Source: JBGPLH01 sp041486365 [NCBI: Thermodesulfobacteriota bacterium]
Lineage (GTDB): Bacteria; JAUYMQ01
Direction: 5' to 3'
NCBI GenBank assembly: GCA_041486365.1
Contig: JBGPLH010000245.1
Coordinates: forward strand, 1 to 5,293
DNA: 5,293 bases
Below are positions 1-5,293 of the stretch, piece by piece (within the stretch, counting starts at the first letter, position 1; every line of letters begins with the position of its first letter). Below the pieces are notes generated by a model that was given only the letters and a program-made list of their open reading frames with translations, did not search any database and had not been told where the DNA came from. A program made the position numbers and the translations under genes.

Positions 1-464
1 AGCAGTTCGGCCTCATCGCCGTGGTAGGTCCCTGGCGCCGGGAAAGTCCTGGGCCGGGTGAGGAACGGCCCCTGGACGGGCTGATCCGGGCTGCGTACCG
101 CTTCCTGCACAAGGGAGGGGCCTTCGTCCTCGGATTCCCGAATCGCCTCGGGCTGCGCGCGCCCCGCCCCACCGCTCCGGGGGGCGACCGATCCGGGGGC
201 TGGATCGGCGCGACAGCGGCCTCATCGAGAAACCGTATAATTCGCGCCGGGTTTCAAGATCCCCAGCTCTACCTCCCGTTCCCCGATTTCACCGACTATT
301 CGGCTCTGGTATCTCTTGACAGCCGGAAAGCCCTCCGATACTTTCACGGCACTTATCGACATCCTCGTGCTCGCTGGAAGCGGGTATTGATCGGCGCGGC
401 CATCGATTCCGGGCTCTTGCCCCTGGTCGCGCCGTCGTACATCGCAACGGCGAAAAAGCCCTGA
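1..464 (+). CDS. SAM-dependent methyltransferase, C-terminal part (5' end cut by window)
   Basis: The reading frame is open from base 3, with no start visible in the window, and ends at TGA 462-464; about 153 residues are seen. The segment LIRAAYRFLHKGGAFVLGFPNRLG looks like the end of a class I Rossmann methyltransferase: a helix, then the 'L.kGG.fvlg.PNR' strand. It is followed by an 'aGF' element (RIIRAGFQDPQLYLPFPD) and a closing 'APSYIATAKK' strand, both common in methyltransferases of surface-glycan clusters. The SAM-binding glycine-rich motif should lie upstream, outside the window. The role is inferred: O- or N-methylation of a sugar or lipid intermediate in the cytoplasm. The next gene starts 20 bases later, consistent with one operon. 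Residues about 52-78 are low complexity and not obviously family-like. Codon third positions are much less GC-biased than downstream: 23 of the last 73 codons end in A or T. The family call is fairly secure; the substrate is unknown. Confidence 0.68.
   Translation, partial: QFGLIAVVGPWRRESPGPGEERPLDGLIRAAYRFLHKGGAFVLGFPNRLGLRAPRPTAPGGDRSGGWIGATAASSRNRIIRAGFQDPQLYLPFPDFTDYSALVSLDSRKALRYFHGTYRHPRARWKRVLIGAAIDSGLLPLVAPSYIATAKKP
188..208 (+). repeat. 7-bp inverted repeat within the methyltransferase gene
   Basis: CCGATCC (188-194) and GGATCGG (202-208) are exact reverse complements separated by a 7-base G-rich loop. The hairpin falls in the low-complexity, poorly family-like stretch of the methyltransferase. 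It is not followed by a T-run, so it is not a convincing intrinsic terminator. Chance is a reasonable explanation in DNA this GC-rich. Confidence 0.3.
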
Positions 465-473
465 GCTGCACCG

Positions 474-480
474 AAGGGGG
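474..480 (+). promoter_or_regulatory. Shine-Dalgarno-like AAGGGGG before the kinase gene
   Basis: A purine-rich AAGGGGG tract sits four bases before the ATG at 485, inside the only real gap (465-484) between genes in this window. It supports ATG 485 as the start. The gap has no room for a terminator, so read-through from the methyltransferase gene is expected. Confidence 0.45.
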
Positions 481-484
481 CCGG

Positions 485-1522
485 ATGTTCCCGCTCCTCG
501 GGCGCTACCTGCTAGACAACTGGACGGAGGTCCTCCCCGGCACGTCCACGCCCGACAAACTCTCCTTCGTTCAGCTTCCCGGCTCGCGCGTGAGCACCTT
601 CCTCATCCTGGGAGGCAGGCGCGACGCCGGCGACCGCCGACCCCTCCTGGCGGTGAAGATCCCCCGCTCCCGCGCGGGGGAAGACTACCTCCGGCTCGAG
701 TACCAGAACCTGGAGCGGCTGGCCGCCCGCTGGGCGCACCTGCCCGGGTTCCTGAAGGGGATTCCGCGGCCGATCTCGCTGTGCGCGATCGGCGGCAAGA
801 CGGTGCTGATCCTCGAGGGGATCCCGGGCTCGCGGCTGCACACTTTTCCGGTTCGGGGGCTCCGACCCCTCGCGCGGGTGAGTCGGTGGGTCGCGGATCT
901 GCAGGCCGCGACGCGCTCCGAAGCGATGCTGTCGGCCGAGGACGTCGAGGCGACGTTCCTCGAGCCGATCCGGAGGTTCTCGAAGGGGGCCGAGCTGTCC
1001 GCCGCCGCGACGGCCTACCTGCGGCGTCTCGAGGATCGCGCGCGGGGCCTGGCGGGATCGGCCTTCCCGCTCGTCCTCACGCACGGCGACTTCAGCGTCT
1101 CGAACATCCTCCTGGACGTTCCCGGCGAAGGCGCCTACGACGATGCCGCCGTGTCGGTGATCGACTGGACGAAGAGCCTGGACGCGGGGCTGCCGCTCCG
1201 GGATCTCTGGCACCTGCTCACGGCCTACGCCAAGGGGCTCACGCCGCAGGCCTCCTCGGGGCGGATCACCTGGTGCCTCCGGGGGCCGGGACCCTACGCG
1301 CGCACGGTGCGGCAATGGCTCGACGACTACTGCAATCGGCTCTCGCTCCCGCGCTGGATGCAGGGTCTGTGCATCGCCTTCGAGTACATCTACGGGGCCC
1401 TGGATTACCCCTGGGGCATCGAGACGACCCGGCGGTCGCGCTACCAGGACAACTTCGAGGCCTTCGTCCGCGGCATCACGGAGAACGATGAAGATCGCCC
1501 CTTCGCTCTACTGGCTGATTAA
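485..1522 (+). CDS. APH-family phosphotransferase (small-molecule kinase)
   Basis: This 345-residue protein has the aminoglycoside phosphotransferase / choline kinase fold (PF01636-like). The N-lobe shows 'LAVKIPRS' with the likely ATP-binding Lys58, followed by an acidic helix (EYQNLERL). The catalytic Brenner motif is HGDFSVSN at residues 200-207, giving catalytic Asp202 and metal-ligand Asn207. A second metal-binding Asp227 lies in 'VSVIDWTK' at 223-230. A helical C-terminal substrate lobe follows. All key residues are intact, so it is probably an active cytoplasmic ATP-dependent kinase. The family phosphorylates aminoglycosides, choline, homoserine, sugars and other hydroxyl compounds. 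In this glycan-type operon, a sugar, sugar-alcohol or amino-alcohol substrate is more likely than an antibiotic, but that is inference. The gene overlaps the radical SAM gene by 35 bases, which suggests translational coupling. The ATG at 485 is chosen because AAGGGGG lies just upstream. Confidence 0.82.
   Translation: MFPLLGRYLLDNWTEVLPGTSTPDKLSFVQLPGSRVSTFLILGGRRDAGDRRPLLAVKIPRSRAGEDYLRLEYQNLERLAARWAHLPGFLKGIPRPISLCAIGGKTVLILEGIPGSRLHTFPVRGLRPLARVSRWVADLQAATRSEAMLSAEDVEATFLEPIRRFSKGAELSAAATAYLRRLEDRARGLAGSAFPLVLTHGDFSVSNILLDVPGEGAYDDAAVSVIDWTKSLDAGLPLRDLWHLLTAYAKGLTPQASSGRITWCLRGPGPYARTVRQWLDDYCNRLSLPRWMQGLCIAFEYIYGALDYPWGIETTRRSRYQDNFEAFVRGITENDEDRPFALLAD
1480..1483 (+). promoter_or_regulatory. 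GGAG ribosome binding site for the radical SAM gene, inside the kinase gene
   Basis: GGAG lies four bases before ATG 1488, within the last codons of the kinase gene. It decides the start of the radical SAM gene and makes the 35-base overlap believable rather than an over-extended start call. Confidence 0.5.
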
Positions 1523-2561
1523 GTACACCGACCGCCGCACGTTCCGGCCGAAGGAGGCGCTGAACCGCGTGCGCCTGGCCACGGACTTCCTGCGCGGCAG
1601 GGAAATCGCGCACGGGTTCCCGAAGCACCTGCGAATTGAGCTCACCAACCGCTGCAACCTCGCCTGCATCATGTGCCCGATCACCGAGATGGAACGGAAG
1701 CTCGGGAACATGGACCTGGACCTCTTCCGCAAGGTCGTCACCGACGCCGCCGCCCACGGGACCACGTTCGTGTACCTGCACGCCTGGGGCGAATCGACCA
1801 TCCACCGCGAGCTGTTCACCTTCGTCCGGGAAGCCAAGAAGGTCGGGCTGCAGGTCGGTCTCTCGACGAACTGCACGTTGCTGGACCAGAAGAAGGCGCA
1901 GGAGGTGGTCGACTCGGGCCTGGACTTCCTGATCCTCAGCATGGACGGCGCGGTGAAGGAGACCTACGAGAAGGTCCGGAAGAACGCCGATTTCGAGGTC
2001 ACCCGCCAGAACATCACGAACATGCTGGCCACGAAGGCCCACGCGGGCCGCGGCCCCTTCACGGTGCTCCAGCTGATCAAGATGACGGAGACCGAGACCG
2101 AGGTGGGGCAGTTCGTCTCCTACTGGAAGGACATCGCGCCCGATTCGGTCTTCGTGAAGAAGCTCTGGACCTGGGACGGCAAGGCGCAGGACATCAACCG
2201 CCTCCTCGTGGACGAGATGCCCAACGCGGTGAACACCGTGTGCCCCGCCCTCTGGAAGCAGCTCATCATCCACTGGAACGGCGACGTGGTTCCCTGCTGC
2301 ACCGACATCGAGGGGAAGCTCCAGCTGGGCAACCTCCGCGAGCAGACGATTGCCGGGATCTGGAACGGCGCCCCGATGCGGGAGCTGCGTCGCGCGCACA
2401 CCGAAGGGCGGCGCGGCGGGCTCTACCCCTGCGACGGCTGCGTGAGCGGCGCGCAGCCGCGTCTGAAGAGCGCGGCGGAGCTGGCCCTTGATGCGATGAC
2501 CTTCGAGAAGTTCATCTTCACCGACCGCACCAGGCTTCCCGGCGACTCGCCCTCCCGCTAG
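1488..2561 (+). CDS. Radical SAM enzyme with C-terminal SPASM-type cluster domain
   Basis: This 357-residue protein has the radical SAM signature CNLACIMC: Cys56, Cys60 and Cys63 (CxxxCxxC) bind the [4Fe-4S] cluster that cleaves S-adenosylmethionine to a 5'-deoxyadenosyl radical. The preceding 'LRIELTNR' strand and the later 'GLSTNCTLL' and 'LDFLILSMDGA' segments fit the partial TIM barrel of the family. The C-terminal region has Cys252, Cys270-Cys271 (in NGDVVPCC) and Cys315-x-x-Cys318, with 'LGNLREQTIAGIWN' between them. This is the SPASM-type pattern (PF13186-like) that holds auxiliary iron-sulfur clusters. Relatives modify peptides or carbohydrates (dehydrogenation, epimerisation, thioether formation). 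No precursor peptide is visible here, and the neighbours handle sugars, so a sugar or sugar-alcohol substrate is inferred. The gene overlaps the kinase gene upstream and abuts the glycosyltransferase gene downstream in the same frame. The family is certain; the substrate is unknown. Confidence 0.9.
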   Translation: MKIAPSLYWLIKYTDRRTFRPKEALNRVRLATDFLRGREIAHGFPKHLRIELTNRCNLACIMCPITEMERKLGNMDLDLFRKVVTDAAAHGTTFVYLHAWGESTIHRELFTFVREAKKVGLQVGLSTNCTLLDQKKAQEVVDSGLDFLILSMDGAVKETYEKVRKNADFEVTRQNITNMLATKAHAGRGPFTVLQLIKMTETETEVGQFVSYWKDIAPDSVFVKKLWTWDGKAQDINRLLVDEMPNAVNTVCPALWKQLIIHWNGDVVPCCTDIEGKLQLGNLREQTIAGIWNGAPMRELRRAHTEGRRGGLYPCDGCVSGAQPRLKSAAELALDAMTFEKFIFTDRTRLPGDSPSR

Positions 2562-2564
2562 ATG
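2559..2564 (+). other. TAG-ATG junction: zero-gap, same-frame stop/start between radical SAM and GT4 genes
   Basis: The amber stop of the radical SAM gene (2559-2561) is followed immediately by the ATG of the glycosyltransferase gene (2562-2564). Both genes are in the same reading frame and are separated by this single stop codon. No purine-rich Shine-Dalgarno tract precedes the ATG (the upstream bases are CGCCCTCCCGC). Translation of the second gene therefore probably relies on termination-reinitiation by ribosomes finishing the first. Confidence 0.8.
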
Positions 2565-3866
2565 CGAATCCTCCTGCCGACCGACTCCTTCCCGCCGGGC
2601 TGCGGCGGTGGGGGCCTGTCGGCCTTTCACCTGGCGTCGGGCCTGGCGTCCCGGGGGCACGCCGTCGAAGTGGTGAAGCTCGTCCCGGGCCTGCGCGGGA
2701 TCCGCGAGACGTCCTTCGAGGGACTCCCGGTCACCGAGTTCGGATACACGCGCCCGGAAATCCCCGGGCTCGGTCCCCTGTGGCTCAATGAGCGCTTTCA
2801 TCCCGTCTTTCGCCGCTACGTGACGGAGCGGCTGAGCAGTCGTCCGGTCGATCTCGTCCACGCCCAGCACATCCTCTCGATCCTTCCCGCGATCCCGGCG
2901 GCCCGGGCCGCCGGCGTACCCATCGTCTCCACGATCCGCGACTTCTGGCCCGTCTGCTTCTGGGACACGTCCCTCTCGGGCGACGAGACCTGTCCCGGCT
3001 GCTCGCCGGAGAACCTGCGCCGCTGCACGCGGCGCCGCAAACCGGCGCTGTGGCCCGCGTCCCGCGCGTTCATCCCCTACATGACCCGCACGCTCCGCCG
3101 GCGGCGGGCGGTGCTCGCCGGCTCGGACGCCGTGATCTGCGTGTCGACCTGGATCCGCGACACGCTCCTCGCCCGCGCGCCCGAGGTGCCGCCCGCGCGG
3201 GTCGAGCGGGTGCCGAACTTCGTCGACTGCGCGCGGCTCCAGGCCGATGATGGCGGGAAGCCGCAGGGGAGCGTGCTCCGGGAGACGGGACTCGCGGGGA
3301 CGGCCTACCTCCTGTACGCCGGCAAGCTCGCGCGGAACAAGGGCGTGATCCCCATGCTCGGAGCCCTCGCGAGGTCGGGCGTGAAGTTGCCCCTGGTCGC
3401 GGCCGCGCGCGGCGAGCTGGAGGGCGCGTTCCGCGCCGAGGCGGCGCGGATCGGGCTCGACGTGCGGCTCGTCGGCTGGCGCGCGAACGAGGAGGTGCAC
3501 GACCTCATGCGGGGCGCGACCGCGCTGCTGTTCCCGTCCCTCTGGCCGGAGCCGCTCGCGCGCACCCTGCTGGAAGCCACGGCGCTGGGCACGCCCATCG
3601 TCGCGACGCCGTCCGGGGGCACGACGGACATCGTGCGGGACGGCGAGACGGGGCTCCTGGCCTCGGGCGAGGAGCCCTTCGCCGCCGCGATCGCCCGGGT
3701 CGCGGGCGATCCCTCGCTGCGCCGGCGGTTCTTCGAGATGGGCCGCCGGCATGCGTGTGAGCGCTTCGACCGCGGCGTGGTCCTCGATCTCGTGGAGGCG
3801 GTGTACGCGCGGGCCATCGGCCGGTCGCGCGCGAAACCCATGGGGGCGGCCCATGGGGCTGCGTGA
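2562..3866 (+). CDS. Glycosyltransferase family 4 (GT-B fold)
   Basis: This 434-residue protein is a retaining GT-B glycosyltransferase that would move a sugar from a nucleotide-sugar donor onto a (probably lipid-linked) acceptor at the cytoplasmic face of the membrane. The N-terminal domain opens with MRILLPTDSFPP and a glycine-rich acceptor-side loop (GCGGGGLSAFHLASGLASRGH). The donor domain has 'YAGKLARNKGV' (Lys255, Lys260), typical of the GT4 donor phosphate-binding region. It also has the hallmark EX7E motif EPLARTLLE, with Glu330 and Glu338, followed by 'GTPIVATPSGGTTDIV' and 'DGETGLL'. Residues 132-155 hold four cysteines spaced C-x11-C-x2-C-x7-C (132, 144, 147, 155), a cysteine-rich insert also met in other GT4 enzymes, possibly a metal-binding knuckle. 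Length is normal for the family. The start abuts the preceding stop; the end overlaps the flippase gene by 14 bases. Donor and acceptor cannot be predicted. Confidence 0.92.
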   Translation: MRILLPTDSFPPGCGGGGLSAFHLASGLASRGHAVEVVKLVPGLRGIRETSFEGLPVTEFGYTRPEIPGLGPLWLNERFHPVFRRYVTERLSSRPVDLVHAQHILSILPAIPAARAAGVPIVSTIRDFWPVCFWDTSLSGDETCPGCSPENLRRCTRRRKPALWPASRAFIPYMTRTLRRRRAVLAGSDAVICVSTWIRDTLLARAPEVPPARVERVPNFVDCARLQADDGGKPQGSVLRETGLAGTAYLLYAGKLARNKGVIPMLGALARSGVKLPLVAAARGELEGAFRAEAARIGLDVRLVGWRANEEVHDLMRGATALLFPSLWPEPLARTLLEATALGTPIVATPSGGTTDIVRDGETGLLASGEEPFAAAIARVAGDPSLRRRFFEMGRRHACERFDRGVVLDLVEAVYARAIGRSRAKPMGAAHGAA

Positions 3867-5293
3867 GCGCCTGCTCCCACCGGGGAGCTTTCGCGCGCGC
3901 CTTGTCCGCAACACGGGCTTCATCCTGGGCGGGGATCTGACGATCCTCGCCACGGGGATGGTGTTCACGATCCTCGCGGCGCGTATCCTCGGGCCCGCCG
4001 CCTACGGCCTGCTCCAGCTCTCCCTCACCGTGGTCCGCTTCATCGACGAGTTCATGGACGTGCGCGTCGAGGAGTCCATCGTCCGCTATCTCGCCGACGA
4101 TCTCGTGCGCAAGGACTTCCGGAGCGCGCAGGCCTGCGTTCTCGCCGGGTACCTCACGGACTTCCTCCTCACCGCCGTCTCCGTGACGCTCGTCCTGCTG
4201 GCCGCGCCCTGGGTGGCCCGCGCTTTCTTCCACATCGCGCCCGCGCAGGAGCCCCAGGCGATCCTCCTCATGCGCCTGTTCGCGGGCGTGCTGGTGCTCA
4301 AGGTGCTGAACGGCACCTCGAAGACGCTCCTTCGCGTCTTCGAGCGTTTCCGCGCGCTGGGGATCTACCGCTCGGCGAAGGGATTGGGCGATCTGCTCTT
4401 CGCGGGGATCGGGCTTCACTGGGGCGCGACGGGCGTGGTGGCGGGGCTGCTCGCCAGCGCGGCCGCGACGACGCTGCTGGTGCAGGCCTTCGCGATACCG
4501 ACCTTCCGCAGCCTCGGCCCCTTCGGCCCCGGCCCGGTATGGCCCCAGTTCCGGCGAATGGGCGGCTTCGTCTTCCAGACGAACCTCTCCGGCTACCTCA
4601 AAGCGCTCAACCGGAACGCGGACATGCTGATCCTCGGCCATTTCGCGCCGCCGGTGGCCGCGGGGTTCTACCGGATCGCGATGAGCTACGCGAATCTCCT
4701 GGGCGTGGCCGCGGCGCCGCTCGGGTACGTGGTCTTCCCGACGATGTCGCGCATGCACGCCCTCGGCGATCCGGCGCAGATCCGTCGGCTCGCGCGGCGC
4801 ATCACGGGAGCGATGGCGGCCTACTCGCTCCCCGTGGCCGCGGCGATGGCATTCTGCGCGGCGCCGCTCCTTGCGCTCACGGTGAAGCGCGACTTCCTGC
4901 CGGCGCTCCCGGCCGTCAACGTGCTGCTGGCCGCCTTCGTCGTGGCGAACGTGACGATCTGGACGCGCCCGGTGACGCTGGCGATCGGGCGGCCCGGGAT
5001 GAGCACCTGGGCCAACGGGATCCAGTCGGCCGTCGTCGTGGCGGCGGCGGTGATCCTCGTGCCGCGGCTCTCCTTCGTCGGGTCCGCCTGGGCCTACTTC
5101 GCCGGGACGCTCGTGTCGAACCTCGTCGTGATCGTCCTGATCCACCGCGCGCTGCCGCTGTTCGGCCAGCCTTCCGCCGGAGCAGTGCGCGCCGAAGGCG
5201 CGAGAGATCCAAGTGCCGTGCGCGCCGAAGGCGCGAGAGATCCAAGTGCCGTGCGCGCCGAAGGCGCGAGAGATCCAAGTGCCGTGCGCGCCG
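3853..5293 (+). CDS. Wzx-like polysaccharide/oligosaccharide flippase (3' end beyond window)
   Basis: The frame opens at ATG 3853 and stays open to the window end (480 codons). No other ATG, GTG or TTG lies in frame for at least 70 bases upstream, so this start is firm. The N-terminus reads 'LVRNTGFILGGDLTILATGMVFTILAARILGPAAYG', a first membrane helix (about 22-43) followed by the 'R.LG...YG' signature of the MOP/PST flippase superfamily (PF01943-like). Further hydrophobic segments lie at about 53-65, 96-117, 137-153, 178-214, 257-270, 278-300, 320-342, 352-373, 393-412 and 416-433, consistent with a 12-14 helix transporter. The family flips undecaprenyl-linked glycans from cytoplasm to periplasm. 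The expected end of the family, just after the last helix (about residue 435), coincides with the start of the 33-base repeats. From residue 445 the chain becomes an 11-residue repeat (VRAEGARDPSA). No stop is seen, so the true C-terminus is unknown. Confidence 0.85.
   Translation, partial: MGLRERLLPPGSFRARLVRNTGFILGGDLTILATGMVFTILAARILGPAAYGLLQLSLTVVRFIDEFMDVRVEESIVRYLADDLVRKDFRSAQACVLAGYLTDFLLTAVSVTLVLLAAPWVARAFFHIAPAQEPQAILLMRLFAGVLVLKVLNGTSKTLLRVFERFRALGIYRSAKGLGDLLFAGIGLHWGATGVVAGLLASAAATTLLVQAFAIPTFRSLGPFGPGPVWPQFRRMGGFVFQTNLSGYLKALNRNADMLILGHFAPPVAAGFYRIAMSYANLLGVAAAPLGYVVFPTMSRMHALGDPAQIRRLARRITGAMAAYSLPVAAAMAFCAAPLLALTVKRDFLPALPAVNVLLAAFVVANVTIWTRPVTLAIGRPGMSTWANGIQSAVVVAAAVILVPRLSFVGSAWAYFAGTLVSNLVVIVLIHRALPLFGQPSAGAVRAEGARDPSAVRAEGARDPSAVRAEGARDPSAVRA
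5185..5293 (+). repeat. Perfect 33-bp tandem repeat array with internal GC hairpin, cut by the window end
   Basis: Three identical 33-base units start at 5185, 5218 and 5251; a fourth begins at 5284 and is cut after ten bases. Each unit is GTG, then an inverted repeat CGCGCC-GAA-GGCGCG (6-bp perfect stem, 3-base loop; 5188-5202 in the first copy), then AGAGATCCAAGTGCC. There is no sequence divergence between copies and no unique spacer, so this is not a CRISPR array. The unit is a multiple of three and in frame with the flippase gene, reading VRAEGARDPSA. It is stop-free in all six frames. Five of its eleven codons end in A or T, against roughly 6% in the preceding flippase, and it uses AGA and AGT, which the flippase does not. 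This suggests a spreading intergenic-type repeat rather than original coding sequence. Copy number and the far boundary are unknown. Confidence 0.92.

What the first reader, a model, noticed from the sequence alone, without database searches (positions are those of the whole stretch)
5185..5293. Perfect 33-bp tandem array of hairpin units at the 3' end of a flippase gene
At least 3.3 identical copies, each with a CGCGCC/GGCGCG stem and GAA loop plus a constant 15-base linker (AGAGATCCAAGTGCC). Zero divergence implies recent amplification or active homogenisation. The unit does not match a REP/BIME, CRISPR, integron or IS-end pattern that I recognise. The array runs off the window, so its true size and function are hidden. 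Possibilities (inference): a slippage-driven phase-variation or C-terminal length switch, a transcript 3'-end stabiliser, a protein-binding array, or a genome-wide dispersed repeat family.
Basis: partly seen in the sequence, partly recalled or inferred. Interest (0 to 1): 0.62.

Follow-up and report, generated by a model that had tools for sequence, protein, structure and literature searches.

The report
Tandem minisatellite at a flippase gene end
A short piece of bacterial DNA is repeated exactly, head to tail, near the end of a gene for a sugar-lipid transporter and at the end of the available sequence; it looks like an ordinary bacterial minisatellite, and nothing found here shows a special function.

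Summary
In detail: a perfect 33-bp unit, 3.3 copies, fills 5185-5293, begins six residues behind the last hydrophobic segment found in a flippase ORF, and runs off the end of the record. Each unit can form the described hairpin, but so can 6-7% of comparable 33-mers. The unit is 3 x 11 bases and stop-free, so the flippase frame continues as (VRAEGARDPSA)n; its codons there are very unlike the host's (1 of 1536 gene windows scores as low), so it probably did not arise as coding sequence in that frame. An exact 20-base core has no match in the species-genome collection; viral, plasmid and phage searches gave only chance-like matches. The organism's genome is not held, so dispersal could not be tested. 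Best reading: a lineage-specific minisatellite expanded by slippage or recombination, where an assembly probably broke. New member of a known kind; low interest.

The parts
5185..5293 (+). perfect 33-bp tandem array, 3.3 copies, running off the end of the window
   Evidence: TRF score 218, 100% matches; period-33 identity from 5218 to 5293
5188..5202 (.). hairpin core of copy 1 (CGCGCC GAA GGCGCG)
   Evidence: exact match; a single unit folds to this hairpin at -10.8 kcal/mol
5221..5235 (.). hairpin core of copy 2
   Evidence: exact match
5254..5268 (.). hairpin core of copy 3
   Evidence: exact match
3853..5292 (+). flippase ORF (polysaccharide flippase, MOP/Wzx-like), open at the window end; read through the array it gains the tail (VRAEGARDPSA)n
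   Evidence: Pfam PF13440 3.7e-21 and PF01943 6.5e-19; NCBIfam NF007773 MOP flippase 5e-15, below its curated cut-off; last hydrophobic segment residues 420-438, array from residue 445
2562..3866 (+). GT4-type glycosyltransferase, neighbour
   Evidence: Pfam PF13439 3.1e-23 and PF00534 2.1e-22
1488..2561 (+). radical SAM/SPASM protein, neighbour
   Evidence: Pfam PF13186 1e-16 and PF04055 1.5e-15
485..1522 (+). APH-like phosphotransferase, neighbour
   Evidence: Pfam PF01636 1.8e-11

Best explanation
The array is a lineage-specific bacterial minisatellite. A short, G+C-rich, partly self-complementary sequence near the 3' end of a flippase gene was multiplied head to tail by replication slippage or unequal recombination (inferred). 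Because the unit is 33 bases long and contains no stop codon (shown), the flippase frame runs on through it and would add a low-complexity tail of 11-residue repeats behind the last hydrophobic segment (open frame shown; translation inferred); such a tail is probably tolerated (inferred). The contig most likely ends here because a short-read assembler could not resolve the array (inferred). No dedicated function needs to be assumed.
For: Perfect tandem identity. The array begins at residue 445, with six residues between it and the last hydrophobic segment, 420-438. In the flippase frame the unit scores -0.50 on a synonymous-usage scale against 0.50 to 0.58 for the four genes; 1 of 1536 eleven-codon gene windows is as low, and third-position G+C is 55% against 90-95%. 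Freedom from stops in six frames is not special: 28% of 20,000 shuffled units share it. No exact match of a 20-base core in genome contigs; no plasmid match at E 1e-5; only weak matches (E 1 to 4) in 16 plasmid and 6 phage records at a limit of 10; in viral contigs only matches whose printed surroundings do not continue into the unit. No copy in the rest of the window: the closest 33-mers differ at 12 and 13 positions. A toy de Bruijn graph with enough units breaks k-1 bases into the array; a review describes collapse and breaks at repeats longer than k (PMC6868369: passages, section 8).
Against: The + strand of the array folds better than 200 of 200 shuffles (z -4.35), which could point to a selected RNA structure, although tandem copies of a self-complementary unit favour such a score. 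In another forward frame (CAPKAREIQVP) the unit's codon score is 0.22, just inside the gene windows' lower 5% mark of 0.21, so a coding past in another frame is not excluded. The NCBIfam flippase models are matched only up to position 401 of 492 and 406 of 469, so the array may have replaced or displaced a normal C-terminal part and not simply followed the natural end. No close homologue shows where this flippase stops: the 9 plasmid records align no further than residue 319, and no solved structure matched. The true stop, the downstream gene and the genome-wide copy number are unknown.
Confidence: 0.6

Rival explanations
1. The unit belongs to a dispersed, genome-specific repeat family (REP/BIME- or MITE-like) that sits at many gene 3' ends, and this is one cluster of it.
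For: Hairpin-forming unit of REP-like size near a gene 3' end; codon usage unlike the host's in the gene's frame. A paper states that E. coli palindromic units are 30-37 bp, intergenic and often clustered, and that a majority of the minisatellites in its genomes were such units (PMC2884548, passages seen).
Against: No second copy in the rest of the window; a 20-base core has no exact match in genome contigs. The host genome is not held, so the direct test is missing.
Confidence: 0.25
2. The copy number is an assembly product: the real genome holds fewer copies and the assembler walked round a short loop.
For: The array lies exactly at the end of the record and all copies are identical.
Against: A loop in a de Bruijn graph needs an array at least k + 33 bases long (reasoning; the toy rows agree), so with k over 33 at least two real copies are needed. 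Assembler, k and reads are unknown.
Confidence: 0.08
3. The array is a functional C-terminal length switch or a transcript 3'-end structure that tunes flippase output.
For: In frame, multiple of three, no stops; + strand folding z -4.35. Tandem copy number in a gene can change a protein: recombinant M. tuberculosis alpha-isopropylmalate synthases with 2 or 14 copies of a 57-bp unit differ in kinetics and in feedback inhibition (PMC2704214, abstract read).
Against: Codon usage in the gene's frame is unlike the host's; no terminator-like site in 4900-5293; the minus strand does not fold unusually (z -0.65). Neither variation nor conservation could be looked for.
Confidence: 0.07

Closest known systems
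Bacterial minisatellites / VNTRs, including MIRU loci of M. tuberculosis
   Same: Tandem units of tens of bases with near-perfect identity; MIRU copy number changes at an estimated 2.7e-3 per locus per year (PMC3635867, abstract read).
   Different: No sequence relative was found in the collections searched; copy-number variation was not observable here.
REP / palindromic units and BIMEs
   Same: Palindromic unit; E. coli units are 30-37 bp and often clustered (PMC2884548 passages).
   Different: No dispersal shown; here a gene's frame stays open through the unit. REP consensus and an associated transposase (recalled as RAYT) were not tested.
Rickettsia palindromic elements
   Same: Repeats that stay in frame with protein genes (PMC10969869 passages).
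   Different: They are about 150 bp and dispersed over many genes (same passages); this is a 33-bp tandem unit at one known place.

Membership tests
Bacterial minisatellite | unit of at least 20 bp, at least two copies, at least 90% identity (parameters as in PMC2884548) | tested here: met
   33 bp, 3.3 copies, 100%
VNTR | copy number differs between strains | not testable with these tools
   own genome not held; no relative with the unit found
REP/BIME | palindromic unit | tested here: met
   6-bp stem with GAA loop, though such a stem is present in 6-7% of comparable 33-mers
REP/BIME | many dispersed copies in the same genome | not testable with these tools
   own genome not held; none in the rest of the window
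REP/BIME | extragenic position | tested here: inconclusive
   the flippase frame is open through the array, with atypical codons; the true stop is not in the window
CRISPR array | repeats separated by unique spacers | tested here: not met
   units abut head to tail and are identical throughout
Intrinsic terminator | stem-loop followed by a T tract | tested here: not met
   none found in 4900-5293
Known structured RNA (Rfam 15) | match over the gathering score | tested here: not met
   in 5000-5293 only a sub-threshold mir-598 match at 5103-5142, outside the array (24.2 bits against 69)

The most novel reading that the evidence does not exclude
An uncultured lineage carries a private family of 33-bp hairpin units that are stop-free in all six frames and a multiple of three, so that they can spread into gene ends in either orientation without truncating the gene, appending repeat tails to proteins.
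Probability: 0.07. Interest if true: 0.5.

Novelty: new member of a known kind. Interest (0 to 1): 0.15.

Why it matters
Little hangs on it as it stands. If the unit proved to be dispersed and tolerated in frame at many gene ends, it would be a good case of a repeat that avoids harm by being stop-free in all frames. In practice it shows a likely cause of contig breaks and of doubtful C-terminal tails in predicted proteins.

Tried and rejected
Own-genome search: no genome is held for the window. Exact 20-base core in genome contigs: 0 stretches; that collection leaves out contigs under 3,000 bases and an exact pattern misses diverged copies. A search there for a relative of the radical SAM protein matched 44 stretches by pattern and confirmed none, so the lineage was not identified. 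The same protein against plasmids gave 98 records, all under 60% identity, from mixed bacteria, of no use for placing the window. Viral contigs: a 16-base core gave 6 stretches, none with the hairpin or a second unit in the 50 bases printed on either side; an 18-base piece gave 7, none of which continues exactly into the linker, and at least four of which are one coding family; a 19-base hairpin piece gave 1, with other flanks; two further patterns gave 0. Plasmids and phages with E up to 10 gave only weak matches; four plasmid rows joined two pieces, as a repetitive query allows.

A flippase-family search in the record of one viral locus found 0 of 1. Attempts to draw related genomes through a virus record, a plasmid locus and an E. 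coli locus did not work; the plasmid record itself has no match to a degenerate core. A taxonomy look-up followed a guess at the lineage and was not used. Full-text searches for the 16-base core and one translated peptide found 0 papers; other literature searches gave listings, from which five papers were opened in part: passages of three, one section of one of these, and the abstracts of two. I recall, from no call, that stop-free G+C-rich repeats appear as odd peptides in predicted proteins of soil bacteria; this was not confirmed.

Rejected: CRISPR (no spacers), terminator, known RNA family, phase variation by frameshift (unit is a multiple of three). In the de Bruijn toy the filler behind the array was itself periodic, so the rows with 4 units at k of 107 or more and with 5 units at k 141 reflect the filler and are not used; the other rows break k-1 bases into the array. 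By that rule 109 array bases would mean k 110, which I do not press. The codon comparison uses overlapping windows from the genes that set the scale. No structure was predicted.

Full report
Observation. The window ends in a perfect tandem array: 5185-5293, period 33, 3.3 copies, 100% matches; identity to the base 33 earlier holds for all 76 positions from 5218 to 5293. The unit is GTG, the stem CGCGCC, the loop GAA, the stem GGCGCG and the linker AGAGATCCAAGTGCC. The rest of the window has no further copy: the best 33-mers starting before 5150 differ at 12 (plus strand) and 13 (minus strand) positions. A repeat search of 1-5184 with 12-base seeds and a minimum of 20 bases found no direct or inverted repeats at all.

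Surroundings. The window (69.7% G+C) holds five co-directional reading frames: the end of an unassigned gene (3-464, no Pfam or NCBIfam match at E 0.001), an APH-like phosphotransferase (485-1522), a radical SAM/SPASM protein (1488-2561), a GT4-type glycosyltransferase (2562-3866) and a polysaccharide flippase (3853 onwards). This looks like part of a surface-polysaccharide cluster (inference). The array lies in the flippase frame. A hydropathy scan finds ten hydrophobic segments, the last at residues 420-438; the array begins at residue 445. I could not fix the normal end of the protein: the 9 plasmid records with relatives align no further than residue 319, no solved structure matched, and the NCBIfam flippase models are matched only up to position 401 of 492 (NF007773) and 406 of 469 (NF047674). 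So the array may follow the natural end or may have displaced a C-terminal part.

Is the array coding? The unit is 33 bases long and has no stop in any of six frames, so the flippase reading continues as (VRAEGARDPSA)n. But 28% of 20,000 shuffled units are also stop-free in six frames. Synonymous codon usage in this frame scores -0.50 per codon against 0.50 to 0.58 in the four genes; 1 of 1536 eleven-codon windows is as low; third-position G+C is 55% against 90-95%. The windows overlap and come from the genes that set the scale, so the comparison leans towards the genes, but the gap is large. Of the other five frames, one forward frame (CAPKAREIQVP) scores 0.22, just above the genes' 5% mark of 0.21; the rest score 0.00 or lower. 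The array most likely did not arise as coding sequence in the flippase frame; a coding past in another frame is not excluded.

Is the hairpin special? A single unit folds to the described hairpin (-10.8 kcal/mol). A perfect stem of six pairs with a 3-8 base loop is present in 6.0% of 5000 random draws of 33-mers from the rest of the window and in 6.8% of 5000 shuffled units read cyclically. In the array the predicted + strand fold is long-range pairing between units, not a row of hairpins, with z -4.35 and 0 of 200 shuffles as good; the minus strand has z -0.65, with 51 of 200 shuffles as good. Tandem copies of a self-complementary unit favour strong folding, and the dinucleotide shuffles do not keep the repetition, so I do not take the z-score as evidence of function. 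There is no terminator-like or sigma-70-like site in 4900-5293, and no Rfam match over a gathering score in 5000-5293.

Relatives. No genome is held for the window. A 20-base core has no exact match in genome contigs, described as one genome for each of 84,980 species. In viral contigs a 16-base core has 6 matches, an 18-base piece 7 and a 19-base piece 1; in none does the sequence printed around the match continue into the unit, and two further patterns have none. Plasmids gave no match at E 1e-5; with a limit of 10, 16 plasmid records and 6 phage records gave weak matches with E of 1 to 4. Exact patterns miss diverged relatives, the lineage was not identified, and no related genomes could be drawn. 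The absence of relatives is therefore a statement about these collections and patterns only.

Explanation. The simplest account is a minisatellite: a short sequence near a gene 3' end multiplied by slippage or unequal recombination (inferred from identity and head-to-tail order), kept open by a stop-free unit of 3 x 11 bases, and tolerated as a protein tail or as untranslated DNA. The array coincides with the end of the record. In a toy de Bruijn graph the path breaks k-1 bases into the array whenever the array is at least k + 33 bases long (the rows that fail this condition reflect a periodic filler and are not used), and a review describes the same limit (PMC6868369, section 8 read). The copy number seen is therefore probably a lower bound set by the assembler (inferred; assembler and reads unknown).

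Comparison. Bacterial minisatellites are a well-described kind; their copy number can change (MIRU, PMC3635867 abstract) and can change a protein's properties (PMC2704214 abstract). E. coli palindromic units are 30-37 bp and clustered (PMC2884548 passages), and Rickettsia palindromic elements lie in frame in genes (PMC10969869 passages). The array meets the size, number and identity criteria of a minisatellite. Membership in a dispersed family is untested because the genome is not available. Full-text searches with the 16-base core and with one translated peptide found no paper.

Verdict. Real, simple and probably ordinary: a new member of a known kind, with an open question about dispersal that needs the organism's genome.

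Noticed in passing
L015 9764-14135 (IMGVR_UViG_3300009109_000049): This viral contig, reached by a chance hairpin match, carries the 11-base motif GTTACAAAACG 25 times on one strand (starts 11346 to 14135) and 3 times on the other (9764, 10701, 11237); the 10-base core occurs 46 times on both strands in 14 kb, against well under one expected by uniform base use, often in tandem groups. It may be a binding-site or promoter array that changes orientation near 11.3 kb. Unrelated to the window.
   Followed up: partly
L008, L009, L011 and L013 (viral contigs): Four of the seven matches to the 18-base piece lie in similar coding sequence (RPKAREIHAPDF-like by eye; recalled as reverse transcriptase-like, not tested).
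   Followed up: no
window 1476-3968, minus strand: An 830-codon open frame runs antisense to the radical SAM and glycosyltransferase genes; probably a by-product of the high G+C content.
   Followed up: no
window 485-3866: Neighbouring genes overlap or abut (1488 against 1522; 2561 and 2562; 3853 against 3866), which suggests one operon with an APH-like kinase, a radical SAM/SPASM protein, a glycosyltransferase and the flippase.
   Followed up: no
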